A DNA stretch of 64,000 bases from Hymenopus coronatus (lineage: Eukaryota > Arthropoda > Insecta > Mantodea > Hymenopodidae): positions 17,103,527-17,167,526 of the forward strand of contig CM060896.1 of assembly GCA_030762935.1 (NCBI GenBank). Direction: 5' to 3'. Shown here piece after piece: positions 1 through 18,049 of the stretch (within the stretch, counting starts at the first letter, position 1; each line of letters starts with the position of its first letter). The notes under the pieces were generated by a model that worked only from the letters and a program-made list of their open reading frames with translations, had not been told where the DNA came from and did no database searches. Position numbers and translations under genes: made by a program.

Positions 1-2619
1 TATTATCTATATATGCACCTACAGAAGAGAAAGATGAGATAAACAAGGAAGAGTTTTACGAAAGCTTAGAAAATACATGTAATTCAGTAGGAACTTATGA
101 TACATTGGTGATACTAGGAGATTTTAATGCCCAAGTGGGGAAAGAAGACTATTTAAATGGAGTGGCAGGGAAACATTCACTACATCAAATAAGTAATGAA
201 AATGGTAATCTACTTGGACAATTCGCAGTTAGAAATAATATGATTATTAAAAGTACCTGCTTCCCTCACAAAGAAATACATAAAGGAACGTGGAAAATGC
301 CAGGCTCAGATATAGTAAATCAAATTGATGATGTGCTAATTAAAGCAAGACATACATCATCAATTATAGATGTAAGAAGTTGTAGAGGCCCAAATTGTGA
401 TTCAGATCACTTTTTGGTTAAAGTGAGAATGAGAATAAAAATAAAGAAGATGGAGAGGGTTCAAGAGAACAAACATATACGATGGGATAGAGAAAAAATA
501 AAAGATAAAGAAGAAAAAAAGAAATATCAAAAGTTAATGAGCAGCAAATTAAATGAAAAAGGAACAGAAGAAGGTGTAGAAGAACAATGGGAGGTAATAA
601 AGGAGACAGTAAAAGTGGTAGCAAAAATAAGTATAGGTGAAAAGAAAATGGAAAGAAACATAGAATGGTATGATAAAGAGTGTGAGCAAGCTATAGAAAA
701 AAAGAACATGGCTAGGAAAAAAATGCTCCAGAAAGAAACTAGAAATAACTATGAAGAATACCGTCAAAGAAGAAGAGACGCTAATAACATATGTAAGAAA
801 AAGAAAAGAGAATATTGGAAAATGCAAACCCAAGAAATAGAAACGCTGATTCAACAGAGTGAGATAAAGAAATTCTATATGACATTAAAGCAAATGAAAC
901 AAGGGAAACAGAATAAAATGAAAGAATGTCTAAGCAAGGAAGGTAATGTTCTTGGAGAAGATAAAGATATACTGGAAAGATGGGCTGAGTACTACAAGGA
1001 ATTGTTAAATAAACGACAATCAATAAATAATCAGGAACAAGGAGAGAATGAAAATGGAAATGAACAAAAAATGGAAGAAGAGGAAGAACCGGATATTTGG
1101 GATGTTAAAATAGCAATACAGAGCCTAAAGAATAATAAAGCACCAGGAGAAGATGACATAATCGCTGAGCTAATTAAATATGGTGGGAATGAAATTATGA
1201 AAGCAATACATAAGTTAATATTAGAAATATGGAGGAAGGAACAGATGCCTGAAAGCTGGAAGACAGGCATAATATGCCCAATATATAAAAAGGGTAATAA
1301 ATATCAATGCCATAATTATAGGGGAATTACATTGCTAAATGTAGCATATAAAATATTTTCAAGTATTTTAAATAATAGAGTGAAAAAATATGCGGAAAAT
1401 GTATTAGGCGAGTATCAATGTGGATTTAGAAGTGACAAGAGTACGATAGACCAGATATTTGTAATACGACAAATAATGGAAAAATTCTATGAGCATGGCA
1501 TAGATTTATGCTTTCTGTTTATTGACTTTAAGTTTGCATTTGACTCAATTGACAGAGAAGTTCTCTATAACACCTTACAATGTTTTAAAGTGCAACCGAA
1601 AATAATAAGACTAATAAAAATGACAATGGAAAATACAAAAGCCAAAGTGAAAGTAATGAATAAATTAAGTCCGGATTTTGATTATAACACAGGAGTAAGA
1701 CAAGGTGATGGACTATCGACGACTCTATTCAACCTAGCCCTGCACAGAGCAGTAGAAAAAATAAATACTAAAGGAACAATATTTTTTAAGTCTAGTCAGA
1801 TATGTGCATATGCAGATGACATATTGATTGTGGCAAGAGATAGGAAAATGTTAGTTGAAGTTTATGAAGAATTAGAAAGAAGGTCAAAAAAAATAGGATT
1901 AGAAGTAAATGAAAAAAAAAATAAATACCTGAAAATGACAGCAGACAAAAGCAAAAGAATAATTGAAAATCTAGTAGTTGGAGACAAAACATTTGAAGGG
2001 GTATCCAAATTTAGATATTTAGGAGCGCTTGTAAATAATGATAACAATTTAAACGAGTGCATAAAAGAAAGAATTCAAGGTGGAAATGCAGCCTATTATG
2101 CAAATTTAAATCTATTAAAAATAGGCTTATTAGTACAGGGACAAAATACAATATCTATAAAACACTAATAAGACCAATAGTAACGTATTCTGCAGAAACC
2201 TGGACCCTAAACAATGTAGATGAAGAAATACTACGAAGATTTGAACGGAAAATACTTAGACGAATCTTTGGACCTGTAAAGGATAAAGACCAATGGAGAA
2301 TAAGATATAATTATGAGATAGAAGAACTAATTAAGCAGCAAAATATTGTGAAATTTATAAAGGCACAAAGAATAAGATGGCTAGGACACATAGAGAGAAT
2401 GACAGAAGATAGAATGCCAAAAAGAATATTGAAAGGAAGACTGTACGCTAGAAGAAAAAAAGGAAGACCAAAAACAAGATGGTTAGATGATGTGATGGAA
2501 GACCTAAGAAAAATTGGAATCAGAGGGTGGAAAAGTAAAGCAGAAGATAGAGATATGTGGAGGAGGATTGTGCAGGAGGCCAAAGCTCACCAAGGGCTGT
2601 AGAGCCAGAAGAGAAGAAG
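1..2619 (+). mobile_element. Non-LTR retrotransposon (LINE), 5' part outside the window
   Basis: The single coding unit is open from the first bases of the window, so the 5' part lies outside. In order it holds the C-terminal half of an APE-type endonuclease, a reverse transcriptase and a basic C-terminal region. A purine tail rich in GAAGA (about 2606-2619) follows the stop and marks the 3' end. This tail abuts the start of the Polinton polymerase gene, so the LINE probably landed at or replaced the Polinton's left end. The clade is RTE-like by general resemblance, but I did not verify this. Confidence 0.9.
3..2602 (+). pseudogene. LINE endonuclease/reverse transcriptase ORF, one frameshift
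   Basis: This polyprotein would copy its own RNA at a nicked genomic site. Endonuclease motifs are GDFNAQVG near 117-140, NQIDDVLI near 318-341 and SDH near 403-411. Reverse transcriptase landmarks are NYRGITLLN (about 1315-1341), FIDFKFAFDSID (about 1518-1553), GVRQGDGL (about 1692-1715) and the catalytic CAYADDIL (about 1804-1827). The first frame stops at 2166-2168. The family's C-terminal region (YSAETWTLN, RIRWLGHIERM, GRPKTRW) is in another frame up to the stop at 2600-2602, so there is one frameshift near 2120. There are no other stops, so this copy is young or recently broken. The frame is already open at base 3. Confidence 0.88.
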
Positions 2620-2637
2620 TTACACGAAAAAGTGTAA
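2620..2637. repeat. Short hairpin at the LINE/Polinton junction
   Basis: TTACAC, then gaaaaa, then GTGTAA form a perfect 6-bp inverted repeat with a 6-nt loop. It sits between the LINE tail and the ATG of the first Polinton gene. Its role is unknown and it may be chance. Confidence 0.4.
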
Positions 2638-2982
2638 ATGACTGACATTGTCAATTTTTTAGGTGTACCAGACGATCTGACACGCCAACTGGACCTGTTG
2701 GAGGAAAGATCGCAATTTCCAGCACAGAAGAAACTGAGTGAAATAGAACAGGATGTTCAGCACCCTGCCACAGCCTGTAGACGCGTCAAAACACGCTACG
2801 GGAATCGTACCGTGATTCATCTGGAGGATTGTCAACTGTTCCTTCCAGCGAGGTACAGTACCATGGCAGAGGATCAGATTAACACGCTTGGCAATGGGGG
2901 ATATGTCATGGTATACAAGGGATTTGAAACTTTGAAGTCCGGATACAAGAAGCACAGCATATGTTTTTTACAGCAGAACAAC
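2638..2982 (+). CDS. First exon of the polymerase transcription unit (or small separate gene)
   Basis: The exon begins at ATG 2638 and reads about 115 residues to a consensus GTAAGT donor at 2983. It contains an acidic helical stretch (EERSQFPAQKKLSEIEQ), a Cys-Arg-Arg basic patch and a compact segment with HLEDCQLFLPARY. From memory, arthropod Polintons carry this module directly upstream of PolB. It may be the spliced N terminus of the polymerase or an independent protein. A short readthrough past the donor would end at 3039. The start is supported because the LINE and hairpin lie immediately upstream. No core promoter is visible in the 18 bp left. Confidence 0.6.
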
Positions 2983-3729
2983 GTAAGTACTAACGTCTCC
3001 ATAGTTATAATGCTTATTTTAATATCACATTTCATTTAAATTCAATGAATACTACTTATTATAGGTGTCTTTTTGTTTGTCAAATTTTATATTTTCTACA
3101 TTTCTGTATTATTTTTCTGGTTTTTATTATTACGATGTTTATTATATCACATTTAATTCAAATTTAACGTCAAGAATGTTAAGCAACACTGTGAGTGAAA
3201 TTTTTTAAATGTTTCTCGATTTTTTTGAAATTTTTACGTTTTCTGCAGTTCTGTACAGATTTTTTCTGATTTTAATTGTTAATACCACTTTTCATTGAAA
3301 ATGAACGAATACTGTAGGTTATAGCTTGTTTTGATTGTTAAGGGACATTTGGAGTGAGAAATTTAAAATTTCGAAAATTTCCTAAATTTCTGTTTATCTT
3401 AATATCACATTTCATTCAAATTGAACGCATACTGTAGATTACACCTGTTTGTTGTTTATTAAGGGGCATTTGGAGTGAAAATTTCTAGCAACATTCCTAC
3501 ATTTCTGTTTTTTCTATTTTTTTAATGTCACATTTCATTCAAATTGAACAAATACTGTAGATTATGTCAGGTTTTTGTTTGTTTGTTTGTTAAGTGGCAT
3601 TTGGAGTGACAAATGAAGCAATAATAAAAAAAATTAAGCATTATTTCATGCAATGTATTATATACTTTTTACATGGCTATAAATGAATATTTGTGTTGGG
3701 ACACTGACTCGCTGTTACAACTGTTTCAG
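2983..3729 (+). other. Intron in the Polinton polymerase unit, built of about 120-bp repeats
   Basis: A GTAAGT donor and a pyrimidine-rich TTTCAG acceptor (ending 3729) bound 747 bp. The interior contains about five diverged copies of a 117-140 bp unit. Each begins near CACATTTCATTCAAATTGAA (around 3025, 3148, 3289, 3406 and 3528), followed by AATACTGTAGATTA, and in most copies TTGGAGTGA. The canonical acceptor leaves the flanking exons out of frame. An AG ending at 3743 would restore the phase, so either that AG is used or one base has been lost. Confidence 0.65.
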
Positions 3730-6700
3730 GTTCCAACCAAAAGAGACCCCGCAGGGATACCACCGATGTAAATGAAACCCAGGCCAAGAGACCATCGCTA
3801 GCGTGTGACGCAACAGGGCAAACGTCAGAATCCTCTGTAAGTCATGGTCAGAATTTACAGTGCTATCAGATAGAAAGTGCTTTCAAAAACAGATTGCAAA
3901 CAATGAGAATAGATAATACCATAAACATATTTGATCCTGAAGCATACATAGAGCAATGTCGTGTTCTAGTTACCAATCTAATTGAAACTCATCTAACTGA
4001 ACATAAATGTGGAATCAAAGTAGACGCGACTCTAACTTGTGCATATATAATTACTACCCCCTATAAAGAACAGACTGAGACGTTTAATTTTAACACCAAA
4101 ATGGATTATGTCGTACAAAGTACAAACCTCAGTCGATGGTATAATGATAAAATAAAAAAAACTTTATTATCACATGTCGATAATTTTGAAACCCGAGATA
4201 GTTCGAAGGCTCTCCATCAGATTCATTCATTAACCATTAACATCTGTAGATACGATGCATTAAATGCATCTCAGTATATAGAATTGCCCGCATTTATTAA
4301 ACATAAGAGGGCAGTCATAAATATAAAGAATACAGACAATAAGTGCTTTGGTTGGTGTCTGCTAGCAGCAAAGTTTCCGGCAAAGTATAACAAAATGCGA
4401 ATATGTTCTTATTCTAAATATAGAATGACAGAAGAATTTAACTTTGAGGGAATACAATTTCCAGTCGGACTCGATCAATTAGAGACATTTGAAAATCAAA
4501 ACAGAGATATATCCATTTCTGTTTTTGGAGTAGACAATCAACGTATTATTCCACTATATCAAATCTTAAATAGAAAAGATACTCACGTTAATCTTTTAAG
4601 AATTGAAAATGAACATAGATCACATTATACATTAGTTACAGATCTGTCGCGTCTTTTGAGAAGTCAAATGAGTAAATGCAAACGAAAAATGTGGATTTGT
4701 GAGGCCTGTTTAAAAGGCTTTTCAAGTGAAACGATATTAAGCAAACACCGTTTAAAGTGTATGAAATGTCAAAATATCGCAACACCTCAGTTGGGAGTTG
4801 ATGACGTAGTTGAATTCAAAGCTTACAATAAGGCTTTCCCAGTTCCATTTGTGGTCTATGCAGATATAGAAACAATACCTCCTAAAGTACAGTCATGTCA
4901 ACCATCTTGTTCTAATAGTTGGTCGCGATCGATACAGCATCATGAGCCCATGTCAATAGCTCTTAAGTTGATATGCAGATATGATGAGTCCGTTTCAAAA
5001 TTTAAACTTTTCAGGGGTTCTAATGCGATCAGTGAATTTCTCATTGAACTTAAATTAATTGCTGATGACGTGATTCAGATATATTCAAATATTATTGAGT
5101 TGACAATGTCTGAGGAAGATGAAATTATTTTTCAAAATTCTGAGTACTGTCACATATGCAAACGGAAATTGGAAATTGATGACATTAAAGTACGTGACTA
5201 TTCGCACTTAAGTGGCCATTTTTTGGGTCCAGCTCATAACTCGTGCAACTTAAACAGAAAACTACCAAATTTCATACCTATATACTTTCATTGTCTCTCG
5301 AACTATGATGCTCATTTTATAGTGAGACACCTAGGTTATGATAATGAACCTATATCTTGCATATCGCAGAGTTCAGAACGATATCTCTCATTTAGTAAGA
5401 AATATAAGTCAATATACTTTACATTTTTGGATACATACAGATTCATGAGTGATAAATTGTCAAATCTAGCCGATTTGTTAACCGATAAGGATTTCAGAAT
5501 TACAAACAGGGAGTACAAAACTCTGGAAAGTCAAAGACTTATGAGACAAAAAGGTATCTTCCCATATTCGTATGTAGACAGCGAAGAAAAATTAAAGGAG
5601 ACGTCACTACCTCATCTTACAAAATTTGATGAAATAACCGCTGAAGAGTACAGTCATGCTCAAAATGTGTGGAAAACGTTTGATATTAGGAACCTTGGGG
5701 AGTATAGTGATTTATATCTGAAAACAGACACCTTATTGTTGGCCGATGTTTTTGAAAATTTCCGTGATCTTGCATTGAAAATCTATGGTTTGGATCCTAG
5801 TCACTATTTCACATTACCAGGATTAGCATTCGATGCAATGCTCAAAATTACGAACATAAAATATCATTGATATCCGATAAAGAGATGATAGATTTTTTCG
5901 AGCCTGCTGTCAGAGGAGGTTTATGCATGGTATCGAAACGCTATGCAAAAGCTAACAATAAGTACATGTCTGATTATGATAATTTGCAACCCGATAATTA
6001 TCTGGCATACCTGGAGGTGAATAATTTATATCCTACTGGAATGTTAGAATTTCTGCCATACGGGGGACTCAGATGGTTAAGTAGGGAGGAAATCAGTAAT
6101 ATCGATTTCTTAAAAATACCATCCAATTCAAAGGTCGGTTACGTTTTGGAAACAGACTTAGATTATCCATCTTCACTACACGACTCCCATAATGAATGTC
6201 CATTATGCGCACAGAGTGAGATTCCACCCAAGGGTGAATACAAGAACCTGTTAGCCACACTAGCACCCAAACTTAATTATATATTACACTATGGAAACCT
6301 GCAGCAATGTATTCAATTAGGGATGACTTTAACTCGCATACATAGAGTGGTCGCATATGATCAATCAGATTGGCTTAAAACATACATAAACAAATTCAGA
6401 TTTGCGTGCAAAGGAGAGCTCCAAATTTGGACAGAATCTATATAAATTAATGAATAATTGCGTTTATGGTAAATTCATTGAGAACGTACGAAAGTATAGT
6501 GACTTCCGTCTTGTTACATCATGGAAGCAGGCACGTAAACTAATTGCACGTAAACTATATATATATATATATATATATATTGGTCAGGCAATCCTTGACA
6601 AGTCAAAATTTATAATGTACTATTTCTATTACAATATAATGAAACCTAATTTAAAAGATCTAGTTCTAATTTACGTTGACACGGATGCATTCCTTTTTGA

Positions 6701-7163
6701 ATGCAGCACAGATATATACAAATTCATAAAAAGTAACATTCAATATTTTGACACATCCAACTACGCTCAGGATAATGTTTATGGAATACCTCGTGTTAAC
6801 AAAAAAATTATCGGGCTGTTTAAAGATGAATTAGCCGGAAATATTATGACTGAATTTATAGGATTGTATATTATTGTATACTTTTAAATATGATGGACAA
6901 GTTGTAAAAAAGCAAAGGGTGTCACAAAGACTGCAATGCGTTCGATCAGTTTTGAAGACTACAAATCGTGCCTTGCTGATACGAGCAAAACGTATTATGC
7001 CAAGCAAACGACATTTAGAAGTAATAAACACGATGTCCATACAATAGAAATGAACAAGGTAGCATAGCACAGTCGTGATGACAAACGTTTGCTTTTGGAA
7101 GGTTCATATTCAACCCTAGCTTGGGGTCACTATTCTATAGTTGAACATTCTGACCATGAATGA
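3730..7163 (+). pseudogene. Protein-primed DNA polymerase B of the Polinton, frameshifted
   Basis: This family replicates linear element DNA from a protein primer. The frame is open from 3732 through the ATG at 3894. Visible landmarks are a Cys-rich finger (CEACLKGF), exonuclease motif I YADIE (about 4858-4872), a DYSHLSGHFLG element, exonuclease motif NYDAHF (5301-5318), the KTDTLLLADVF block (about 5720-5752), motif A LEVNNLY (about 6010-6030), motif B KLMNNCVYGKF (about 6443-6475) and motif C YVDTDAF (about 6672-6692). Breaks are frameshifts near 5866 and 6400, loss of frame near 6870-6915 with a stop at 6885, and TAG at 7065. A (TA)n tract at 6557-6582 replaces coding sequence between motifs B and C. 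Motif A has Glu where I expect the catalytic Asp. The last recognisable frame ends at TGA 7161-7163. Confidence 0.92.
6557..6582. repeat. (TA)n microsatellite inside the polymerase gene
   Basis: About 13 TA units are read as alternating Tyr-Ile in the polymerase frame, between motifs B and C. This is a post-integration expansion in a gene no longer under selection. Confidence 0.85.
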
Positions 7164-7610
7164 GGGTGGGAAGTATCAAGAGGTCTGGGGAGGGAAAGAC
7201 ATTTCAATGACAGTATTGCACTACATTTTTTCGAAGTATATTTTGAGATATTACATAGAAAACCGAAAATGTAGTTTAAAAATATATTTTATGAAAGCAT
7301 ATTTAGTATTACAAACTGCATCTTAATTTTCATTTCTTTACACAAATTCGACGAAATTGCAACACATTATTTTTCCAGATTAGTTTTAGGATACTTAGAT
7401 AGGGAATCACAGTTGTAGGATTATTTTCAAAATGTAGATTGTACTTAGTATTAATAATGTATATTAATTTTAATTTTTCACACAATTTTGTAAACATTGC
7501 TACACAAATAAAATAATAATTTTTGTATTTGATTTGTCTTCGTTGTTTTCATTTACATCCTTATTCTTATCCTCATCCTTATTATAGAAGGTAGAAAATA
7601 AGAACACATA
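7164..7610. other. Polinton intergenic region after the polymerase
   Basis: This is an AT-rich spacer between the convergent polymerase and integrase genes. An AATAAA-like run lies near 7506-7518 and could end the polymerase transcript. No coding potential is seen. Confidence 0.5.
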
Positions 7611-7755
7611 TGCCAGCATGTTGCCATGGTAGCTCAGTGATAAAGCAACCGGCTACAAACCATGAGATATTTGTTCAAATCCCGGCTATAGCATCGATGT
7701 TTTTCAGTCTGACTCTACCTATCCAACTCCTGTCCCACACAAGGCTTGGGTAATC
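7611..7755 (+). mobile_element. tRNA-derived SINE (family A) with 14-bp target duplication
   Basis: Box A-like GGTAGCTCAGTG (about 7630) and box B-like GTTCAAATCCC (about 7673) sit at tRNA spacing. They are followed by a non-tRNA tail (CAGTCTGACTCTACC). The flanks are AATAAGAACACATA (7597-7610) and AATAAGAACGCATA (7756-7769), 13 of 14 identical, which is the signature of LINE-mediated retroposition. It sits in the polymerase/integrase spacer of the Polinton, so it arrived after integration. A related truncated copy is on minus at 49738-49838. Confidence 0.85.
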
Positions 7756-7907
7756 AATAAGAACGCATAGTTCAATATACCAATTTTTATTGCCTAAAAC
7801 AATTTTGGTTACATTAAATCCTTACTTTCAATCCATTCTGACTTACGAAAGCCTAACCATTTCACTTTAACCTTGTTTCCTCTTCGCTTTAGTATTTTTT
7901 CAACCAG

Positions 7908-8726
7908 TTATTTATCAGGATATCGCGTCGTCGATAGCTCATGCCCATAGAATCCTGCAGAAATTTCATTTCCCTCAGAATCCTTTATTATGTATGTTGG
8001 AGGAACTGTAGACTTCACTTTGCTGATTTGAAATATCTCCGTACTCCAGTTTGGTGTGTATCCCTTTTCAAACATTGATTTATACTTTGAGATCCTAACG
8101 TTGTCACCGATTTTGAATTTTTTTGATCTCCTCTTTTCTCTCTTATGGTGGCGTCGAGAGTAGACGCTGAGAAGAAGATCATTGTTGGTGACATCTTTAG
8201 GACGCATTCGAATCGTTGAATGGTAAGAGTTATTATAAGAGTCTATCACCTTAGGTAAGAGGTCTAGCCATTGGTATGACCCTTGTATCAGAAACTCACG
8301 GTACATCATTGTTTTTATGGTAAGTATTAGACGTTCCACAGCGGCTGCCTTTACAATGCTGAATGTACTATAATGGTTGATCTTATACTTCATCATTAAT
8401 TGTTTGAATGAGTTGTTATAAAACTCTTTACCATTGTCGGATTGAATGTGCTTTGGAGACGTTCCCATTTCCTTCAATATGAGCTCCATTGCATTTGTTA
8501 CATGACTACCAGACGTATCCTTTAGAGGTTTTGCATAGGCCATTTTTTAATAAAAGTCGATAGCAATCCGTATATATTTATGATTTTTATTTTCCCTTGC
8601 ATATGGAATCATTTCTATTAGATCGATCTGTACCAGGTCATGCAGTCCCTTTATGACTATTTTTCTACGAAGACATTTTATTCGCGCCGGTGAATGTAGT
8701 TCCTGTGCAATGTTTCGCTTAATCAT
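7908..8726 (-). pseudogene. Polinton DDE integrase, one in-frame stop
   Basis: This is a retrovirus-type integrase that would join element ends to host DNA. Reading from ATG 8726, the N terminus (ELHSPARIKCLRRK) leads to the first acidic residue in VQIDLIEM. The second Asp is in SDNGKEFYNN and the Glu is in VERLILTIK, so the DDE triad is present. The C-terminal part has a basic patch (RRHHKREKRRSKKF) followed by a small beta-rich domain (IGDNVRISKYKS...), as in Polinton integrases. One in-frame TAA at 8547-8549 breaks the protein after the first third; otherwise the frame is continuous to the stop at 7908. Its ATG overlaps the stop of the upstream gene as ATGA. An AATAAA on minus at 7786-7791 is a plausible poly(A) signal. 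Confidence 0.9.
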
Positions 8727-9478
8727 GATATAATTTTCGATATACTCAGTTCATGTATTATTTCTTCGATCTCAATGCCGTGGTTCTTATTCCCCGCCTC
8801 TTGAGATGCAAGTAGAAGCCTCAGACGATTCACCAATACGTTAGGGTCGGACCAATAAATATAATCGGTACTCTCCCGAAGCTCCTTCCATTCGACTCCC
8901 GATCCTGTCTTCTTTATGAGATTCTTGATTATGTTTTTATATTTAAAGCCAGAATTCGACTTCAAACGGCCGTTACGCACATATCCACTTTTGTGAACTA
9001 ATGTATTTTGTAGAATGTGAGCGTATGTATCCAGATCGTCTTCGGTAAATGCTGATTTACTTGGCACTCTTTTGAAGATTAGTTCAAGTAACCCAGGATT
9101 TATTTTATAACGCTCACTCCCTATTTGAATGTAATTGTCATCGTCGATTTGGATAACTTTATTCTCTAGCCAATAGCTACCATTTTCATAACGGATTCCA
9201 TATGTCGTATCCAGGTCGTTTTTTCCTAATTTACGAATTTTGCCTAGGTACGATGTAATGTTATCCTCGTGTTCTTTCATGTCTTCAGTTTTCTTTCCCG
9301 CCTCTTCTTTGATTTGCAACATTGCGTTGAGAGGTGTAGTTACGGGTTGAAGAACCTCCGACATGATACGCTGGGTTTCGAACTTAGTACCCTTTAGATA
9401 GCGTAACTTTTCCCTAATAGCCTTAGTATGCTGTGCTATGGATTGCTTCAGTCTGATAGTATCACTTTCAGTATCCAT
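8723..9478 (-). CDS. DUF8207-like Polinton protein
   Basis: 251 residues, intact from ATG 9478 to TGA 8723. The first about 90 residues are charged and helical, probably coiled coil. The rest resembles the domain I know as DUF8207 from spider and insect Polintons: a TTYGIRYENGSYWLENK strand region, YKINPGLLELIFKRVP, KYKNIIKNLIKK and a C-terminal WSDPNVLVNRLRLLLASQEAG helix. The function is unknown; conservation beside the integrase and structural genes suggests a virion or packaging role. It is one of the few unbroken genes here. It shares ATGA with the integrase start downstream, and 17 bp separate it from the fibre-like gene upstream. Confidence 0.8.
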   Translation of the reverse strand: MDTESDTIRLKQSIAQHTKAIREKLRYLKGTKFETQRIMSEVLQPVTTPLNAMLQIKEEAGKKTEDMKEHEDNITSYLGKIRKLGKNDLDTTYGIRYENGSYWLENKVIQIDDDNYIQIGSERYKINPGLLELIFKRVPSKSAFTEDDLDTYAHILQNTLVHKSGYVRNGRLKSNSGFKYKNIIKNLIKKTGSGVEWKELRESTDYIYWSDPNVLVNRLRLLLASQEAGNKNHGIEIEEIIHELSISKIIS

Positions 9479-9495
9479 TTTGAAATGATTAATTA

Positions 9496-10434
9496 TTAAC
9501 TAGACATTATCAATTTATAAGAGACAACCAATTCGATATTTAGGATATGTCCGTCTTTAGGTTGTTGAACTGGGGCTGTGAATGTTATTCTATCTCCTTT
9601 CGTGAATGGGTATGGATATGCTTCTATACGTTTTCCGTTTACTGCCGCCATAGTACCTGATCTTGTGAATGGTTGGGGTGATGATATCATACTGCATTCG
9701 ATCAATGACCCATCGAACGGGAGTGAATAGTATTGGAGTCCGGACGTGAGCATATATCTTAGCGAGCTTCCTCTGAAAGCCTTCGTTTGTAGTCGAATGA
9801 CCAGCTGACCTCTCAGTCGGTCTATAATCGTGTTTATGACGTTCACTTGAGTTTTGAGAACTTCGACCTTATCCATCGTCACGGTTAGAAATTTATCCAT
9901 GGAGTGCTGTCTCGCGGTCATAGGTTCCAGGTTTTGCTCCACCACCTCAGCGATATCTTTTGGGAGGGGGTCTATGGCACTCTTGATGTACTTTAGCGTC
10001 TCTTCGTGTTTCTTTTCTACGACTTGAATGACAAATTGTTTATTTGTTGCATCACCGTTGTCTATAGGAAGAGCTATTTCTTTTAATTTTCTGTGTCCGA
10101 ACGTAACGTTTCCGTCAGAGTCCAATGGCGGAGTATGTGATTCTACATAGTCTGTTAAATACTTTTTATTAGGCACATCGTATTCATGCTCAGGAGTCAT
10201 TAGTATTTTCAGTCTGATCTTATCAAGAAGTATGTTGTTTTCAGAATCGCGTTCTAATGCATATTTGCCTAAGTATGACAATAGATTCTCGTACTGAGTG
10301 TCGAGTGATGTTTGTATGTGATTCCTAAGCGTAGTTTCGAATTGACCCACGTGACAATAACATGTTTTTTCTGTGAATGTCTGCAATCGGATCTCGATGA
10401 CAGACGTAATCGTATCCACATACTTCTTAGTCAA
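9496..10434 (-). CDS. Fibre-like/minor structural Polinton protein
   Basis: 312 residues from ATG 10434. The frame is also open upstream through codons reading DPEEEGDALTKKYVD, so the true N terminus may lie a few residues earlier or the original start may be lost. The sequence contains repeated short elements ending in TKKYVD or NKQFV, long amphipathic helices (about residues 130-220), and a compact beta-rich C-terminal domain (SGLQYYSLPFDGSLIECSMI to the end). A helical or repetitive shaft with a globular C-terminal head suggests a fibre or attachment protein, which is an inference from architecture. No break is seen. It lies between the DUF8207-like gene and the ATPase on the same strand. 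Confidence 0.7.
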   Translation of the reverse strand: MTKKYVDTITSVIEIRLQTFTEKTCYCHVGQFETTLRNHIQTSLDTQYENLLSYLGKYALERDSENNILLDKIRLKILMTPEHEYDVPNKKYLTDYVESHTPPLDSDGNVTFGHRKLKEIALPIDNGDATNKQFVIQVVEKKHEETLKYIKSAIDPLPKDIAEVVEQNLEPMTARQHSMDKFLTVTMDKVEVLKTQVNVINTIIDRLRGQLVIRLQTKAFRGSSLRYMLTSGLQYYSLPFDGSLIECSMISSPQPFTRSGTMAAVNGKRIEAYPYPFTKGDRITFTAPVQQPKDGHILNIELVVSYKLIMSS

Positions 10435-10562
10435 CGCGTCACCTTCTTCCTCAGGGTCGCGAACATTACACTGATTAGAAACCGATTAATTACCCCCCTG
10501 TAGGGAGTTGTTCGCCGGGAACCGAATCTGTCGATGCACATTACTATAATGAATGACGCTAC
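10435..10562. other. Spacer between ATPase and fibre-like gene
   Basis: 128 bp. The part nearest the fibre-like gene is open in that gene's frame and may be lost N-terminal coding. No TATA/initiator pair is recognised. Confidence 0.4.
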
Positions 10563-11263
10563 TTAACTATTCACCGTGATAAAGGTATCGAAGCCACTTC
10601 TATAACGCCCATCGTTCAGGGGAAATTCTGGAGCAATGACAACAAAAGGTCTCGAGTTCAATCCGTCGTTGCTCTCCCAAACTTTTCTACACACATCTTT
10701 GAATTCTATATATCTCATATCTGTATTTACGTAATCGTCGTATATGTGTTTTAAGTTTAGATTGTCTTGTCTAAAGAGGATAATCATACTCGCATTATCT
10801 CTAATTAAATGCTTGGGGACTTTGGCGTATGACTGTGCTAAATAAATAGCATCTACATTGCGATGTCTTCCCATACTGAAATACGATGCAATTTTGCTCT
10901 GTTTCTCATTGATTTAGTCATCGAACACGAAGATGGAATTTTCTCTAGCTTCAGATGTATCTACAACATTGTCACCTTCCGTGAATGTGCAGACTCCTAT
11001 GTCGGGTATGCTCCTTAGTACCTCGAATAAGTATTGGTATTTTGGTTGGTATAGAGATTTTGAGTATATGTACAGGTTTTCAAATCTCAGTCCATTCTCG
11101 TGAACTAGTAAATTGAGCAATACGTTGGTCTTTCCAGCATTCGAACTACCTAATATGAGCTCACGTTACTCGGAAAGAGTGATCCGTATCTCCCTTCTCT
11201 CACATCACTATCGAAGTCAATCACTTGTATGGGCAGAGTACACTTCTGCTTTACAACTTCCAT
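10563..11263 (-). pseudogene. A32/FtsK-type genome-packaging ATPase, two breaks
   Basis: This ATPase would pump DNA into capsids. From ATG 11263 the N-terminal part (VIDFDSDVREGRYGSLFPSNV) is typical of the family. A frameshift near 11160-11170 separates it from the Walker A loop GSSNAGKT, and an in-frame TAA lies at 11166-11168 in the second frame. The Walker B strand IFVFDD is immediately followed by an in-frame TAA (10914-10916). The same frame then continues through MGRHRNVDAIYLAQSY (sensor-like) to the stop at 10563. The total span corresponds to about 233 codons, the usual family size. The gene is transcribed divergently from the PLA2 gene across a 54-bp gap. Confidence 0.88.
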
Positions 11264-11317
11264 CTAGTAACTAAGACTATAAAATGTATATATACAGTAT
11301 TTATTCAGTATTGTATC
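11264..11317 (+). promoter_or_regulatory. Divergent core promoter: TATA box plus arthropod initiator
   Basis: TATAAAA at 11278-11284 is followed by TCAGTA at 11305-11310, whose A is 29 bp from the first T of the TATA box. That is the standard TATA-to-start spacing, and TCAGT is the arthropod initiator consensus. The PLA2 gene ATG at 11318 lies 11 bp after the predicted start. The 54-bp region also separates it from the ATPase ATG (11263, minus). Confidence 0.65.
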
Positions 11318-11992
11318 ATGAGATACAAGGGAGTAAAGAAGGCTACTAAGAGAGGTGCGGGAGTTCTTAATTCTTTAATTAATTCTCTACCATTTGAAGT
11401 TCATTTACCTGGCTATAGATACTGCGGACCTGGAACCAAACTTTATAAACGATTACAAAGGGGTGCCCCAGCCCTAAATCCATTAGACCAAGCGTGTAAG
11501 GATCACGATATCGCCTACGCAGTGAGTCAAGACTCCAGCTCAAGACACATGGCAGACAAGATCCTGGTGGATAAGGCTTGGAGTAGAACACAGGCTAAAG
11601 ACGCTACTTTGGGTGAGAAACTCTCTGCTAGACTTGTCACTACGGTCATGAAGGGCAAGCTTGCGACTGGCGCTGGTTTGAAGAGGATGAAAGTGAGGAG
11701 GAGGAGAATTCTACCACTGCCAGCTCGGGGTGGTTTTCTACCATTGGTACCCTTATTAGCAGCATTGGGTGCAGCCGGAAGCCTTGCTGGAGGTGCTGCT
11801 CACATTGCTAACTCTGTAAATAAGAAGAAAGCTGCCGATAAACATTTAAGTGAATTGATTCGTCATAATCAAAAAATGGAGGCTTTAGCTATGGGAAAAG
11901 GACTTAGAAAGAAGAAGCGAAAGGGCAAGGGGTTGTACATACGTCCAAAAAACTGGGGAAGAGGTCTGTATTTATTCCCGAAAAAGCGTTAA
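11318..11992 (+). CDS. Phospholipase A2-domain / core-like virion protein
   Basis: 224 residues from ATG 11318, preferred to an in-frame ATG at 11225 because the TATA/initiator pair lies just upstream. Residues 35-40 (YCGPGT) look like the calcium-binding loop and residues 57-64 (DQACKDHD) hold the His-Asp catalytic pair, as in parvovirus-type PLA2 domains found in adintoviruses. A hydrophobic Gly/Ala-rich segment (about 136-170) and a Lys/Arg-rich C terminus with GKGLY-type repeats follow, resembling adenovirus core peptide pX. It probably acts in the virion at membrane passage and in DNA condensation, inferred from relatives. The frame is intact. It is a structural virus protein, not a venom enzyme. 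Its 3' end overlaps the start of the protease frame. Confidence 0.82.
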   Translation: MRYKGVKKATKRGAGVLNSLINSLPFEVHLPGYRYCGPGTKLYKRLQRGAPALNPLDQACKDHDIAYAVSQDSSSRHMADKILVDKAWSRTQAKDATLGEKLSARLVTTVMKGKLATGAGLKRMKVRRRRILPLPARGGFLPLVPLLAALGAAGSLAGGAAHIANSVNKKKAADKHLSELIRHNQKMEALAMGKGLRKKKRKGKGLYIRPKNWGRGLYLFPKKR

Positions 11993-12321
11993 GCGCAACA
12001 GAGATTGAGAGGTATGCCAGACTTTTAAATATTCCTCATTTTAGGGGAGTGTATATGATAGACAATCTTCCATCAAGACCGAAATTTAGAGAGAGGATTA
12101 TCGTTAACTTGGATACTTTGGCAAATCCTGGAACTCATTGGGTTGCTATACGCAAGGACGGAAGTTTCGCTTTATATTTTGACAGCTTTGGTATTCTGAA
12201 ACCACCCAAGGAAATTGAGACCTATCTCAATGGTGTTCAGATAAAGTATAAGAGGCATAGGTTTCAGAATTTCAACTCAGTTATTTGTGGTCAATTGTGT
12301 CTACAGTTTCTATCGACATGA
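11973..12321 (+). pseudogene. Adenain-like cysteine protease, start codon not evident
   Basis: This is the maturation protease of the capsid. The family's N-terminal segment (ALSATEIERYARLLNIP, HFRGVY) starts at about 11979 in a frame that overlaps the PLA2 3' end, but no ATG lies upstream before a stop; an ATT precedes the first family residues. The catalytic His is in GTHWVA, the Asp/Asn position is in YFDSFG, and the Cys is in ICGQLCLQFL. The TGA at 12319-12321 overlaps the ATG of the next gene. It is otherwise unbroken. Either the start codon was mutated or translation depends on the preceding frame. Confidence 0.8.
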
Positions 12322-13025
12322 GTTACACGATCACTGTAAGCGGTACTGCTTCCGTTATTTCAACGTCTCTGCATCCACCGATCTAGCTGGATCCTGATGG
12401 TCTTTACGTGATTGCACTTTTAAATTTGGAGACTTTCTACTCTATTTCGAACGTTGATAAGAGCAACAACTTATTCCACTATTATAAAGATGGTGTACTT
12501 GTAACGATAGAACCTCCTCCAGGCACGTATGAAATTGATGACCTTCACAAGCTGCTCAAGGAAAGGCTTGGCACTGGTAATGACTTTTTCCAACGACCTA
12601 ATAATAATACAATGAAATCTGAAATTCAATGTCCCTATCCATTCGATTTTTCGAAGGAGAACTCTATCGGCTCGCTTTTGGGATTCAACAAGACTGTAAG
12701 GGTTGAGGCGGGCGTCTTAACGACATTCGACAACCTGGTGTACATATTTAAAGTGAGTATCATCCGCGTCGAGTGCAGTGTTGCTACTGGTTCTTTCATT
12801 GACGGTAGAAGGGGTCATTCATTGTACGAGTTTTTTCCTTCGGTTCCTCCTGGCTATCACATTTCACAGGAACCTTCCAATCCAATATATCTACCTCTCA
12901 TCGATACAAATATCATAGACCAAATAACCGTTTGCGTAGTGGATCAGAACGGTGATACGGTGAATTTTAGAAACGAAAACATAACTGTAAGACTACATAT
13001 CAGACGATATGGGAATAAATTTTAA
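12318..13025 (+). pseudogene. Penton-like minor capsid protein, one in-frame stop
   Basis: The ATG at 12318 overlaps the protease stop as ATGA. An in-frame TAG at 12384-12386 interrupts after 22 codons. The remaining frame is intact to TAA 13023-13025 (about 235 codons in all). Recognisable segments are ETFYSISNVDKSNNLFHYY, EPPPGTYEIDDLHKLLKE, CPYPFDFSKENSIGSLLGF, HSLYEFFPSVPPGYHISQE and a C-terminal ITVRLHIRRY strand. From memory these belong to the conserved single-jelly-roll minor capsid (penton) of Polintons. It lies just upstream of the major capsid gene, as usual. Confidence 0.82.
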
Positions 13026-13118
13026 AAGGAGATGCTATAATAGCTCTCCTCTTTCCCGATTACGCCAATCTCGATCTAATCAAAGGTTCCTCGAGAGCTT
13101 AGGATTCCGAGTGTTACG
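13026..13118. promoter_or_regulatory. Minor/major capsid intergenic region
   Basis: 93 bp with a TATAATA at 13036-13042. No initiator is found at the expected distance, so a promoter is only possible here. Confidence 0.25.
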
Positions 13119-14397
13119 ATGATGAATATTTTAGATGTGACAGCAGTTCCAACCTTCGATGACAAGATTAGTAAGGAGGAAGAACACATATTTCTACCAT
13201 ACAACATGTCGGCTCTAGATGCAAACGATGAAATTAGAATACCATGTCAAACGGAAGATTTGTACACATTACCCAGTGGAAGTTATCTTTACATCGAGGG
13301 GGCTATCACTAAGGCCGATGGGAGTCCTACATCTACGAAGCTCACCAATAATGCAATGGCGTTTCTCTTCGATGAAGTTCGTATTGACGTGAATGGTACT
13401 ACTATAGATCGAACTAGGAATCCTGGTATTTCATCGACCATGCGCAACTATGTTAGTCTCAACATACTGGAATCGAATCGCTTACATCCCGCCTGCGGTG
13501 CCATTAGTAGTTAAAGCGGGCGTTAAACACTACCAAAAAAAAAAATCGAATCGCTTACAGAATGCTGGCTGGACATATCCAGGGCAGGAGGTTGACATTG
13601 TAAACGCAACTGGAGGTTTAGACGCTGTTTTACCCCTCTCTTTACTTCTTGGATTTGCTGACGATCACAAGGAACTCATACTCAACAGCAAGTTTGAACT
13701 GGTTCTCATTCGATCTAAAAATTCTAATAATTGCATGAAGGGTGAAGAAGCAGCTGTTATTAGACTGAAGCGTATTGAATGGAGGATGCCAGGACTTAGA
13801 CTTTCCGATTCCGAAAGAGTGGAAAAACTCAAATTGGTAAAATCTGATCAACCGCTACATGTTGCATTTCGAACTTGGGACCTGCACACACAACCTGCTG
13901 TTCCTGAGACTAAATCTTTCACTTGGAATATTGCTACTACCTCGAAACTAGAAAAACCTCGTTTTGTAATTGTGGGAGTACAAACGGCTAGACTGAATGA
14001 TTCGACAAAAGATTGCTCTCTATTTGATCATTGTAACATCACTAATCTGAAACTGTATCTCATTAGTGAATGTTATCCATCCAACGATATGAACTTGGAT
14101 TTTAGAACTTCAAAGTTTGCATCCCTATATGAACTGTACTCGAAATTCCAGAATTCATATTATGGCAAAGATAATTATCCTCTGTTGAAGCGGAATGACT
14201 TTGCGAAATTTGCACCCCTATTCGTCATCGATTGCTCTCATCAACCTGAGGAGACCGTCTCTGGAGCTGTCAACATCAGACTGGAAGTTCAAGCATCGGA
14301 TAACATACCTGCACGCACATCTCTGTTTTGTCTAGTTATTCACGATAAACTTATCACTTACAGACCTCTAACACATGTAGATCAATCCATTATATAA
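13119..14397 (+). pseudogene. Hexon-like major capsid protein split by a mini-SINE
   Basis: This is the double-jelly-roll capsid shell subunit. The N-terminal half starts at ATG 13119 (a second ATG follows at once) and includes FLPYNMSALDANDEIRIP and VRIDVNGTTIDRTRNPG. The frame ends at 13514 because of a 57-bp insertion plus a 16-bp target duplication (73 bp, so a frameshift) at 13487-13559. The C-terminal part (GLDAVLPLSLLLGFADDHKE, QLEKPRFVIVGVQTARL-like region, FQNSYYGKDNYPLL, GAVNIRLEVQA) runs intact to 14397. Apart from the insertion no other break is visible, so the gene was intact when the insertion came. AATAAA lies at 14406-14411. Confidence 0.9.
13487..13543 (+). mobile_element. 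57-bp poly(A)-tailed mini-SINE with 16-bp target duplication
   Basis: The 57-bp insert includes GCCATTAGTAG and GGGCGTTAAACACTACC and ends in an A-run of about 10. The 16-bp sequence AATCGAATCGCTTACA is present exactly on both sides (13471-13486 and 13544-13559). A relative, GCCATGGTAGTTCGCCTGCG then GACGTTAAACAC plus poly(A), is on minus at 49838-49905. This is the signature of retroposition by a LINE machinery. Confidence 0.85.
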
Positions 14398-14405
14398 AAT
14401 CTATG

Positions 14406-14411
14406 AATAAA
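14406..14411 (+). terminator. Poly(A) signal of the capsid gene
   Basis: AATAAA 9 bp after the capsid stop codon and before the convergent minus-strand gene. Confidence 0.6.
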
Positions 14412-14426
14412 AAGAAACTAAAATAT

Positions 14427-14879
14427 TTACATCTTATCTTTTTTATTGCATCTAGAATACATATCTATTACCCTTTTCCTAATACTCCTGCTTGGCATAT
14501 TATACGGGCACAACGATGTATGAAAATCTTGCAGCTGATATAAATATTTTTGAATATATGGTATAAGTCTTTTTAATCCTGTTATTGCAACATTATCCAG
14601 ATATATTACGTTATTATTTAGGCAAGTATTTGCTAACATTATTTGATTCACATTGTTTATGCACAAGATTATATTATATGCATAAATTATATTTTCACCA
14701 TACTGTTCACTGGGGAACTTTTCTTCATGAATGTACCGTTCAATCTTAGGAATATTTTTCACCACTATCTGCCAGTCAGGTTTTGTTATGTACACATATG
14801 AATCATCGTTCGTTCTTATGTAAAGAACCGGAACTTCATAATATAATCCTATATTCACACGTGCACCTGGGCTCTTCAT
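14427..14879 (-). CDS. Unknown small Polinton protein
   Basis: 150 residues from ATG 14879 to the stop at 14427. I do not recognise the family. It is a soluble, mixed alpha/beta-looking sequence with Tyr/Asn-rich middle segments (YAYNIILCINNVNQIMLAN) and a basic C terminus (SRSIRKRVIDMYSRCNKKDKM). No signal peptide or membrane segment is convincing. It is convergent with the major capsid gene, 29 bp apart, and its ATG overlaps the stop of the upstream minus-strand frame as ATGA, matching the overlap style of the other Polinton genes. That context makes it a Polinton accessory gene. Confidence 0.65.
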   Translation of the reverse strand: MKSPGARVNIGLYYEVPVLYIRTNDDSYVYITKPDWQIVVKNIPKIERYIHEEKFPSEQYGENIIYAYNIILCINNVNQIMLANTCLNNNVIYLDNVAITGLKRLIPYIQKYLYQLQDFHTSLCPYNMPSRSIRKRVIDMYSRCNKKDKM

Positions 14880-15490
14880 TTTGAAGCATTTTCTTTCTTG
14901 ACTTGAGGAGGCGACTGGGATGGTGCAATGGGATCCAGGAAAATTACTATCACCTGATCTTTATCCAGTCCTGTCTTAGACTTCCTCAACTTGTTATTCC
15001 TTTTCTTTGCTGTCCTCTCCTTTTTCGCCTCTCTGCAACACACACACACATATATACACACCCTTCTTTAGTTACGAGACTTATAAGGTTTACATTACAC
15101 AAGGGTAATATCAACCATATGCTCAACTTTCTCCTTCAACTGATGGTGAAGTGACTGGAGGTAGATTTTCTACATCAGGGATTGCAAGAATTTCTTCAGC
15201 GTCAGGATTGCTGAAAATAATTATCATAGACTCAGTTCTATTGTATTTATAACACAGTTTACTAACTAGTTAGACCCATAAACTTATTTTATTCTTACGT
15301 TTTTTCTTCCTTGTTGCCATACACTTCACAGTTTTCCCCACAGTGGAAGACTGACATCATTTCCTTGTGCTGGGATGGTTCGGTGCAAATGATCCGGTGT
15401 GTCGCACTTTTCGATATGCTTCTCTAGACAATGCTCCCTCATCTCATCGTATGTCTTAATGTTAGACCACGTTGCGTTGTCGCTCTCCAT
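14876..15490 (-). CDS. Probable spliced accessory gene at the Polinton right end, structure uncertain
   Basis: Minus-strand segments look coding. One ORF starts at ATG 15490 (MESDNATWSNIKTYDEMREH) and has Cys/His-rich spacing. An overlapping frame from ATG 15357 reads MSVFHCGENCEVYG. A GTAAG donor (exon end 15299) and a TTTTCAG acceptor (exon start 15210) bound an 88-bp intron that keeps the second frame open into NPDAEEILAIPDVENLPP. A third segment, 14876-15032, follows a (TG)n stretch with TTGCAG and is Lys-rich (EAKKERTAKKRNNKLRKSK); its stop overlaps the next gene's start. The first two frames disagree by one base, so the gene may be broken. The family is unknown. Confidence 0.45.
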
Positions 15491-15530
15491 GTTCACTCGG
15501 TACGACGACTTTCGGACAAGTGGTTTCATG

Positions 15531-15740
15531 CCTCTTTTTTCTCTCCTTTATTCCATTGCTGCAGGGGGTGGCGGGTGAGGAGGGATTTATTGACACGTAT
15601 CGACTTGCTCTGTCGTGATGACACACCACATCACGGAAATGAATATACACCGTGGGGGGACTCGTGTGACATGTCTCGACTTGTCCTAGCACTTCGTGCA
15701 CTTGAGGTCACACACAGACACACTCACGCACACACACACA
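15531..15740. other. Polinton right-end non-coding region with CA runs
   Basis: Overlapping short ORFs on both strands look like chance. There are (CA)n tracts near 15703-15740. No gene is called. Confidence 0.4.
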
Positions 15741-15953
15741 CACTCGGAGGGGGTCCGCCTTCTTTCCTCTCCTTATGACACGTACAAACTACCGTTGAAC
15801 CCTTATGAGGATTCAAAATCAGATCGATATTACCACTGAATCCTTATACACACTCGGAAGGGGTCCGCTCCTCTCCGTATGGCACGTACAAGTATTACCG
15901 TTGAACCCTCATGAGGATTCAAAAACAGATCTATATTACCATTGAATCCTTAT
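15741..15953. repeat. Two tandem copies of a 107-bp motif, possible Polinton terminal repeat
   Basis: CACTCGGAGGGGGTCCGC...TTGAACCCTTATGAGGATTC...GAATCCTTAT (from 15741) recurs with a few substitutions from about 15850, ending at 15953. The next base begins a different repeat (Helentron-like). Tandem motifs are known in Polinton terminal repeats, but no partner remains at the left end to prove it. Confidence 0.5.
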
Positions 15954-16285
15954 TTACATACTACTACGAACTTTTTTGAGATGTTCCTTGTTATTGGTTT
16001 CAGTTTTAAAATGTACTTTTCTCATGCGGGAATTTGTCAATTTCTGGCAATACAAACAAGGGAACTTCAATCACATAACAACCAGCTTTTAAAACGTTTG
16101 ACCATCGCTTTAACCTATGCTACTTCCTTATTTCCCTTCTACTTACAAGGAAGCAAGTAATACGTATGACAATCTGCTAATTTTGTCTCGATTAGCATGA
16201 AGTAAATAGAAGAATAAGCGTTTTAACAATAGTGTTTGCAGAGATGTAGAGAAAGTCATATGAATGGAACACATCAGCCTTTTTG
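15954..16285 (+). repeat. Helentron-like repeat, copy 1, 3' part
   Basis: Matches the 3' third of the family described at 35056-35943, from the segment after TTTTTTCGTGG to GTAGAGAAAGTCATATGAATGG and the terminal hairpin. It begins exactly where the putative Polinton end stops. Confidence 0.75.
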
Positions 16286-16794: not shown

Positions 16795-16824
<30 letters not shown>

Positions 16825-18049
16825 CATACATACATACATACATACATACATACATACATACATACATACATACATACATACATACATACATACATACATA
16901 CATACATACATACATACATACATACATACATACATACATACATACATACATACATACATACATACATACATACATACATACATACATACATACATACATA
17001 CATACATACATACATACATACATACATACATACATACATACATACATACATACATACATACATACATACATACATACATACATACATACATACATACATA
17101 CATACATACATACATACATACATACATACATACATACATACATACATACATACATACATACATACATACATACATACATACATACATACATACATACATA
17201 CATACATACATACATACATACATACATACATACATACATACATACATACATACATACATACATACATACATACATACATACATACATACATACATACATA
17301 CATACATACATACATACATACATACATACATACATACATACATACATACATACATACATACATACATACATACATACATACATACATACATACATACATA
17401 CATACATACATACATACATACATACATACATACATACATACATACATACATACATACATACATACATACATACATACATACATACATACATACATACATA
17501 CATACATACATACATACATACATACATACATACATACATACATACATACATACATACATACATACATACATACATACATACATACATACATACATACATA
17601 CATACATACATACATACATACATACATACATACATACATACATACATACATACATACATACATACATACATACATACATACATACATACATACATACATA
17701 CATACATACATACATACATACATACATACATACATACATACATACATACATACATACATACATACATACATACATACATACATACATACACACATACACA
17801 CATACACACATACACACACACATACATACATACATACATACATACACACATACACACATACACACACATACATACATACATACATACATACATACATACA
17901 TACATACATACATACATACATACATACATACATACATACATACATACATACATACATACATACATACATACATACATACATACATACATACATACACACA
18001 TACAGACACACACACACATACATACATACATACATACATACATACATAC
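16795..18049. repeat. 1.25-kb (CATA)n microsatellite
   Basis: Essentially perfect CATA units from 16795 to about 17789, then units with CACA variants (17790-17870 and 17993-18018). Because the 4-bp unit makes no stop codon, all frames are open for over 1.2 kb. These ORFs are artefacts. Confidence 0.98.

What the first reader, a model, noticed from the sequence alone, without database searches (positions are those of the whole stretch)
2620..15953. Nearly complete Polinton/adintovirus fossil with a full virion gene set
Polymerase, integrase, ATPase, protease, hexon, penton, PLA2/core, DUF8207-like and fibre-like genes are all present in order. Four core genes lack only one or two lesions and two structural genes are unbroken. 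An element with both integration and capsid genes preserved is informative about the Polinton/virus boundary in arthropods, and the two right-end minus-strand genes (14427-15490) match nothing I recognise.
Basis: partly seen in the sequence, partly recalled or inferred. Interest (0 to 1): 0.75.

Follow-up and report, generated by a model that had tools for sequence, protein, structure and literature searches.

The report
Polinton fossil with a spliced gene
A virus-like jumping element (a Polinton) lies broken but complete from end to end in a large, unnamed, probably insect genome that also holds many younger relatives, and one of its unknown genes appears to be cut by introns, which published work says intact vertebrate relatives do not have.

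Summary
The element is a Polinton/Maverick, but its edges were misread. Position 2620 is the edge of a 3.13-kb LINE insertion; the left terminal repeat lies outside the window. The copy spans C17:17101557-17119491 (17,935 bp with the LINE) and ends at window 15965, with 257-bp TIRs (6 differences), (AGT)2//(ACT)2 ends and a 6-bp duplication matching at 5 of 6 positions. Integrase, double-jelly-roll capsid and PLA2 are placed by profile; polymerase and A32-type ATPase through sister copies. Protease, penton and DUF8207 labels are not confirmed. The window copy is dead. The genome holds at least 122 capsid matches in three rough groups; in 15 copies of the youngest group a 1260-aa polymerase frame and a 438-aa capsid frame are both open. 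The two unknown right-end genes are a three-exon gene plus a single-exon gene. Two phase-2 introns recur in all three groups, with a protein-coding substitution pattern between groups A and B. The single-exon gene has at least 151 matches here and no relative in two searches of 5.8 billion proteins. Splicing rests on comparison; no RNA was tested. Known kind, with an unusual spliced orphan cassette.

The parts
1..2617 (+). LINE inserted in the element (about 3.13 kb, from L051 9487 to window 2617); reverse-transcriptase-like frame 2045-2602
   Evidence: 13-bp direct repeat on both sides; ORF; LINE identity recalled from the ORF's appearance, no profile match
2618..2630 (.). right copy of the LINE's 13-bp target duplication (left copy L051 9474-9486, outside the window)
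2664..2982 (+). second exon (predicted by eye) of the left-end gene, an OB-fold-like domain by recall only; predicted first exon, TATA box and ATG lie left of the LINE, outside the window
   Evidence: 150 matches scored in the genome, other families included; similar layout in a group B copy, L058; no Pfam match
3708..7142 (+). type B DNA polymerase, broken: at least two frameshifts (about 5860, 6392) and at least one stop (about 6885)
   Evidence: 51-61% identity to an open 1260-aa sister frame; DNA_pol_B_2 2.2e-14 on a 267-aa part of that sister
7812..8723 (-). integrase, one frame with two in-frame stops (8547-8549, 7908-7910)
   Evidence: rve 2.3e-7, just below the curated cut-off; 64% identity to a 306-aa open sister frame, itself rve 1e-10, above cut-off
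8723..9499 (-). open frame of unknown function (reader: DUF8207-like; not confirmed)
   Evidence: 53% identity to a sister frame; no Pfam family above cut-off
9496..10485 (-). fibre-like open frame, shorter than its sister (329 against 496 aa)
   Evidence: sister matches 25 residues of the T7 tail-fibre N-domain, 2.6e-6, above cut-off
10563..11263 (-). A32-type packaging ATPase, one frameshift (about 11163) and one stop (10914-10916)
   Evidence: 65-74% identity to a sister frame that matches Pox_A32, 1.1e-5, above cut-off
11183..11992 (+). PLA2-domain/core-like protein, frame open
   Evidence: Phospholip_A2_4 3.8e-13; Adeno_PX 0.003, below cut-off
11908..12321 (+). protease-like frame, open
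   Evidence: 67% identity to a sister frame; in that sister only sub-threshold matches: an Ig domain 0.00067, Josephin 0.011, Peptidase_C5 0.031
12387..13025 (+). penton/minor capsid candidate, open
   Evidence: found by tblastn in 27 of 30 capsid loci, the window's own included; label by gene position, no profile match
13080..14397 (+). double-jelly-roll major capsid protein, broken by a retroposon tail (about 13486-13543) with a duplication of about 15 bp and poly-A
   Evidence: PF21738 1.6e-13 and 8e-84; insertion read
14427..14960 (-). single-exon orphan gene; short deletion near its start in this copy
   Evidence: 151 matches in this genome; none in protein and Pfam searches and only weak ones in PDB
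14877..15032 (-). third exon (Lys-rich) of the spliced right-end gene; overlaps the start of the orphan gene
15128..15210 (-). second exon (acidic) of the spliced gene; donor after it changed in this copy
15299..15490 (-). first exon (Cys/His-rich) of the spliced gene; 8-bp deletion in this copy
15709..15965 (.). right terminal inverted repeat, ends ACTACT; left partner L051 8031-8287 starts AGTAGT
   Evidence: 257 bp, 6 substitutions, no gaps
15966..15971 (.). right copy of the 6-bp target duplication ACGAAC (left copy CCGAAC)
   Evidence: the site lies inside a dispersed repeat whose other part flanks the left TIR

Best explanation
The feature is a complete but dead copy of a Polinton/Maverick (adintovirus-like provirus). 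Shown: TIRs with AGT-repeat ends, a 6-bp duplication (one mismatch), integrase, type B polymerase, A32-type ATPase and double-jelly-roll capsid in one element; many relatives in the same genome, including a young group at unlinked sites. Inferred, from knowledge of the family: the polymerase copies the linear DNA from a protein primer at the AGT repeats, the integrase inserts it with 6-bp duplications, and the capsid genes package it in virions. The right-end cassette on the minus strand holds a three-exon gene with two phase-2 introns, followed by an overlapping single-exon orphan gene. Both are constrained between groups and are most likely nuclear accessory proteins for nucleic-acid binding or regulation (proposal). 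Their expression would then need the host spliceosome, as adenoviruses do (recalled).
For: TIRs, ends and duplication; a group C copy on C6 has the perfect duplication AGCTAT and TIRs of about 1.08 kb. Genes. Family, as lower bounds: 122 capsid matches, 65 polymerase matches, 151 matches of the orphan gene. Youth of group C: 9 right ends, 36 pairs, mean 0.24% substitutions (0.11% without L035), stopping sharply in different flanks. Introns: same order and phases (2 and 2) in groups A, B and C; splice dinucleotides kept in 22, 21, 22 and 21 of 22 group B copies; differences between one A and one B copy by codon position 45/29/80, p 1.5e-6. Constraint A against B: capsid pN 0.11, pS 0.72; orphan gene pN 0.31, pS 0.68.
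Against: No transcript was examined, so splicing is inferred. Within group B the codon-position signal is weak or absent: exon 1 shows it, exons 2 and 3 and the orphan gene do not, and intron divergence (0.037, 0.041) overlaps exon divergence (0.026-0.041). Exon 3 aligns between A and B hardly better than the introns do, and another frame of it has the same amino-acid identity, though with stops. The window copy has lost a donor, and 7 of 7 other group A loci looked at (L002-L008) have a lesion in the capsid or the cassette. Full-length and 560-aa sister polymerase gave no DNA_pol_B_2 match; only a 267-aa part did. No virion evidence. Penton, protease and DUF8207 labels unproven. The window's target duplication matches at 5 of 6 positions.
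Confidence: 0.87

Rival explanations
1. The right-end exons are separate small unspliced genes, and the GT-AG sites are coincidental.
For: Each exon is itself an open stretch; within-group codon signal is weak; no RNA data.
Against: Phase 2 at both junctions in the three groups; in the A/B pair compared, exons are open in the carried frame and other frames hold stops, except one nearly open frame of exon 2; in group B the four dinucleotides are kept in 22, 21, 22 and 21 of 22 copies, the two misses being a gap and one AC.
Confidence: 0.1
2. The family now moves only as a transposon inside this genome; the capsid genes are passengers.
For: High copy number; near-identical copies at unlinked sites.
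Against: Capsid is the most constrained of the three sequences tested between groups A and B (pN 0.11, pS 0.72); 15 young copies keep capsid and polymerase frames open together.
Confidence: 0.3
3. Part of the near-identity in the genome is segmental or assembly duplication rather than transposition.
For: Group B copies on C21 (237-239 Mb) and C39 recur at similar spacing.
Against: The 9 group C right ends looked at sit in different flanks, and the C6 copy has its own 6-bp duplication.
Confidence: 0.08

Closest known systems
Vertebrate Mavericks (PMC8097293; abstract start in the listing, passages)
   Same: (AGT)2//(ACT)2 ends, 6-bp duplications, PolB, integrase, ATPase, protease and capsid genes, size 12.7-24.6 kb, TIRs 46-1447 bp, fossils beside open copies, core genes under purifying selection
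   Different: that paper reports no introns in intact elements; here two introns are predicted in a right-end gene; an orphan right-end gene without relatives in the searches made. Gene order and the PLA2 gene were not compared in detail
Drosophila-associated adintoviruses (PMC8363768; passages seen)
   Same: 13.3-14.6 kb, PolB, integrase, capsid, protease and FtsK-like ATPase (gene list stated for the first of three)
   Different: known as contigs from fly pools; no splicing of their genes mentioned in the passages seen; sequences not compared here
Proteins with the PF21738 domain in insects such as Cotesia, Exocentrus, Leptinotarsa and Plutella
   Same: 37-49% identity to the window's capsid piece among 119 of the 120 listed (of 163 found); the best, from an unnamed source, has 74%
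   Different: gene context not examined

Membership tests
Polinton/Maverick | terminal inverted repeats with AGT- or AG-repeat ends | tested here: met
Polinton/Maverick | 6-bp target duplication | tested here: met
   5 of 6 in the window copy, 6 of 6 (AGCTAT) in the C6 sister copy
[quoted passage not shown]
   window piece only 0.072; 267-aa sister part 2.2e-14, sister homologous to the window; full-length sister no match; protein priming not testable
Polinton/Maverick | retrovirus-like integrase | tested here: met
   window 2.3e-7, just below cut-off; sister 1e-10, above it
Polinton/Maverick | A32/FtsK-type packaging ATPase | tested here: met
   sister above Pfam cut-off; window pieces below it
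Polinton/Maverick | adenain-like cysteine protease | tested here: inconclusive
   Peptidase_C5 0.031 and Josephin 0.011 in a sister, both below cut-off, and an unrelated Ig domain scored better; window none
Polinton/Maverick | double-jelly-roll major capsid protein | tested here: met
Polinton/Maverick | single-jelly-roll penton protein | tested here: inconclusive
   conserved frame (27 of 30 loci), no profile or PDB match
Polinton/Maverick | intronless genes (reported for intact vertebrate elements; not a criterion of the family) | tested here: not met
   two predicted introns in the right-end gene in three groups; no RNA
Adintoviridae | makes virions | not testable with these tools
   -
Adintoviridae | position in a polymerase or capsid tree | not tested
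   no tree was built

The most novel reading that the evidence does not exclude
In this genome several Polinton lineages share an intron-containing accessory gene and an orphan partner gene, both kept by selection, so that the elements depend on the host spliceosome as adenoviruses do; one lineage has spread very recently.
Probability: 0.75. Interest if true: 0.55.

Novelty: new variant of a known kind. Interest (0 to 1): 0.47.

Why it matters
Polintons are discussed as links between transposons and adenovirus-like viruses. Conserved spliceosomal introns in their genes would be a trait shared with adenoviruses and would place part of their expression in the nucleus. A genome with many young copies that keep open frames, beside fossils such as this one, makes expression and splicing testable by looking at RNA and particles of the living host.

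Tried and rejected
An 1842-aa frame holding the left-end domain on C13 looked like a fusion with the polymerase but was an artefact of N runs. A PC4-like (single-strand-binding) reading of the orphan gene and an OB-fold reading of the left-end domain come from recalled motifs only; searches gave no support (best PDB match kinectin at 0.031, then a proteasome subunit at 1.1). A single-sequence fold of the orphan gene was unusable (mean pLDDT 35), so no fold search was made. Capsid scans (single piece and alignment) and a polymerase scan of IMG/VR found nothing. A blastn for TIRs at the window's candidate ends failed because the left TIR lies outside it. Whether the left-end exon is also spliced to the polymerase is unresolved: the phases of the visible sites do not fit in this copy (read), and the group B exon may simply run to a stop. 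The left-end domain was not found by tblastn in the group C left ends (L052, L053) nor in L054, which may not reach far enough.
Full report
What was checked. The window is C17:17103527-17167526 of an unnamed 3.127-Gb assembly in 384 contigs. Direct profile matches in the window are rve 2.3e-7 (31.5 bits, cut-off 32.6), Phospholip_A2_4 3.8e-13 and the double-jelly-roll domain 1.6e-13 and 8e-84. The window's polymerase piece (0.072) and ATPase piece (0.018) are sub-threshold. Open frames of two sister copies of the young group settle both: DNA_pol_B_2 2.2e-14 on a 267-aa part (the full 1260 aa and a 560-aa part gave none) and Pox_A32 1.1e-5, above cut-off. They align to the window at 51-61% (PolB) and 65-74% (ATPase) identity.

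Boundaries. The comparison of the candidate ends found no TIR in the window. The 10 kb to the left (L051) hold a reverse-complement match to window 15709-15965, 257 bp with 6 substitutions. The left end reads CCGAAC|AGTAGT and the right end ACTACT|ACGAAC, so the copy is C17:17101557-17119491, 17,935 bp. The insertion sits in a dispersed repeat: one part flanks the left TIR (L051 7935-8024) and the next part follows the right end. Between L051 9487 and window 2617 lies a LINE of about 3,131 bp with a 13-bp duplication. Hence 2620 is the LINE's edge. Left of the LINE I read by eye a TATA box (L051 about 9065), an ATG (9107) and a donor; a group B copy (L058) has a similar arrangement, so the LINE appears to lie in the first intron of the left-end gene. 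This is reading by eye only.

State of the copy. Compared with sister frames and ORFs: PolB has at least two frameshifts and at least one stop; integrase two stops; ATPase a frameshift and a stop; the capsid gene a retroposon tail with poly-A and a duplication of about 15 bp; the right-end cassette an 8-bp deletion, a changed donor and a short deletion. Five frames remain open. If the TIRs were identical at insertion, 2.3% divergence suggests a few million years at about 3e-9 per site per year (rate recalled, six events only).

The family. The capsid query matched 122 places (a lower bound, 122 of 17,603 candidates scored). By identity to the window they fall roughly into group A (about 82-95%, mostly broken), group B (about 74-81%, frames often 435 aa) and group C (about 68-73%, frames often 438 or 407 aa); the bounds are soft and no tree was built. 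The polymerase query matched 65 places (62 of 3,448 candidates scored). Pairing the two lists by position gives 15 group C copies in which a polymerase frame of 1260 aa and a capsid frame of 438 aa are both open, the matches starting about 10.0 kb apart on one strand, and 4 of a sister subgroup (1306-1319 and 407 aa). The other genes were not checked in each of them. Nine group C right ends were compared: 36 pairs, mean 0.24% substitutions, 0.11% without L035, maximum 0.83%. The nine stop at the same point of the element in different flanks. The C6 copy runs over 19,276 bp with TIRs of about 1,083 bp (937 aligned with 1 difference, the remaining 155 at 99.4%) and the duplication AGCTAT on both sides. 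In vertebrates the largest number of intact copies reported is 38 (PMC8097293, passage), so the number here is high but not without parallel; 'intact' there means more than was checked here.

The right-end cassette. The 177-aa frame matched 151 places in the genome, many with an open frame over residues 30-174, and a homologue was found in 30 of 30 loci of the first capsid set, the window's own included. It has no relative at E up to 1 among 12 candidates (single sequence) and 1,349 candidates (alignment of groups A, B and C). The other 'gene' is the first exon of a three-exon gene. Exon lengths in one group A copy (L005) and one group B copy (L013) are 200/84/151 and 221/81/130, introns 88/96 and 87/83. 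Both introns are phase 2 in A, B and C (in C for one copy, L031). In group B the four dinucleotides are kept in 22, 21, 22 and 21 of 22 copies, in group C in 9, 8, 9 and 8 of 9, where the two misses are a pattern not found rather than a change seen. Between L005 and L013 the carried frame has no stop except the terminal one; other frames hold stops, apart from one frame of exon 2 (1 and 0). Differences fall 45/29/80 by codon position (p 1.5e-6), and alignment scores over shuffles are 11.7, 6.3 and 3.0 standard deviations for the exons against 2.1 and 2.8 for the introns. Exon 3 is therefore not clearly better than the introns on that last measure, and in another frame its amino-acid identity is as high (0.45 against 0.44), though with stops. 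Within group B the codon-position signal is weak or absent, as expected if most differences there arose after insertion. A paper on vertebrate Mavericks states that no introns were seen in intact elements, in agreement with earlier work (PMC8097293, passages). Searches for Polinton or adintovirus with intron, splicing, splice or intronless (listings; passages of PMC12220804 describe group I introns in protist elements) showed me no report of spliceosomal introns in animal Polintons. I opened few of the listed papers, and most subscription journals are not held; the adintovirus proposal itself was not available.

Selection. By Nei-Gojobori counting between A and B copies, pN/pS are 0.11/0.72 for the capsid, 0.31/0.68 for the orphan gene and 0.29/0.77 for the first exon (one pair of several each). 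Synonymous sites are near saturation, so ratios are rough, but constraint is clear.

Interpretation. Integration and terminal features place the element in the Polintons; the capsid constraint suggests that virion formation has mattered for the lineages. What the right-end proteins do is inferred from their place, their Cys/His-rich, acidic and Lys-rich segments and their overlap: most likely nuclear accessory or regulatory proteins that bind nucleic acid. That is a proposal, not a result.

On going back to the calls I corrected the penton count (27, not 28, of 30 loci), the distance between polymerase and capsid matches (about 10.0 kb in every pair), the group bounds, the wording on open frames of the orphan gene, and added the results against exon 3 and the protease label.

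Noticed in passing
genome, e.g. L057 1499-1807 (C3:76035400-76041400): A further repeat family carries a relative of the left-end domain: 39 of 150 listed matches have nearly the same score at 34% identity, and those that I compared do not coincide with group C capsid places; two of its neighbouring frames matched no Pfam family above cut-off.
   Followed up: partly
genome C21:237.0-238.7 Mb and C39: Group B capsid copies recur at similar spacing on both, and a right-end-exon relative lies about 62 kb from several of those on C39: segmental or assembly duplication.
   Followed up: no
window 16795-18049: Tetranucleotide array, about 315 copies of TACA.
   Followed up: no
window 41885-42744: Tandem array with a period of about 64 bp (self-comparison).
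   Followed up: no
window about 15968-51150 and L051: A dispersed repeat of about 0.9 kb in many copies on both strands; the element is inserted in one of them.
   Followed up: partly
L031 948-1994 (minus): Group C has a longer right-end cassette with two frames resembling the first exon, apparently an exon duplication, read by eye.
   Followed up: partly
window 15738-15953: The TIR contains a tandem repeat of about 106 bp.
   Followed up: no
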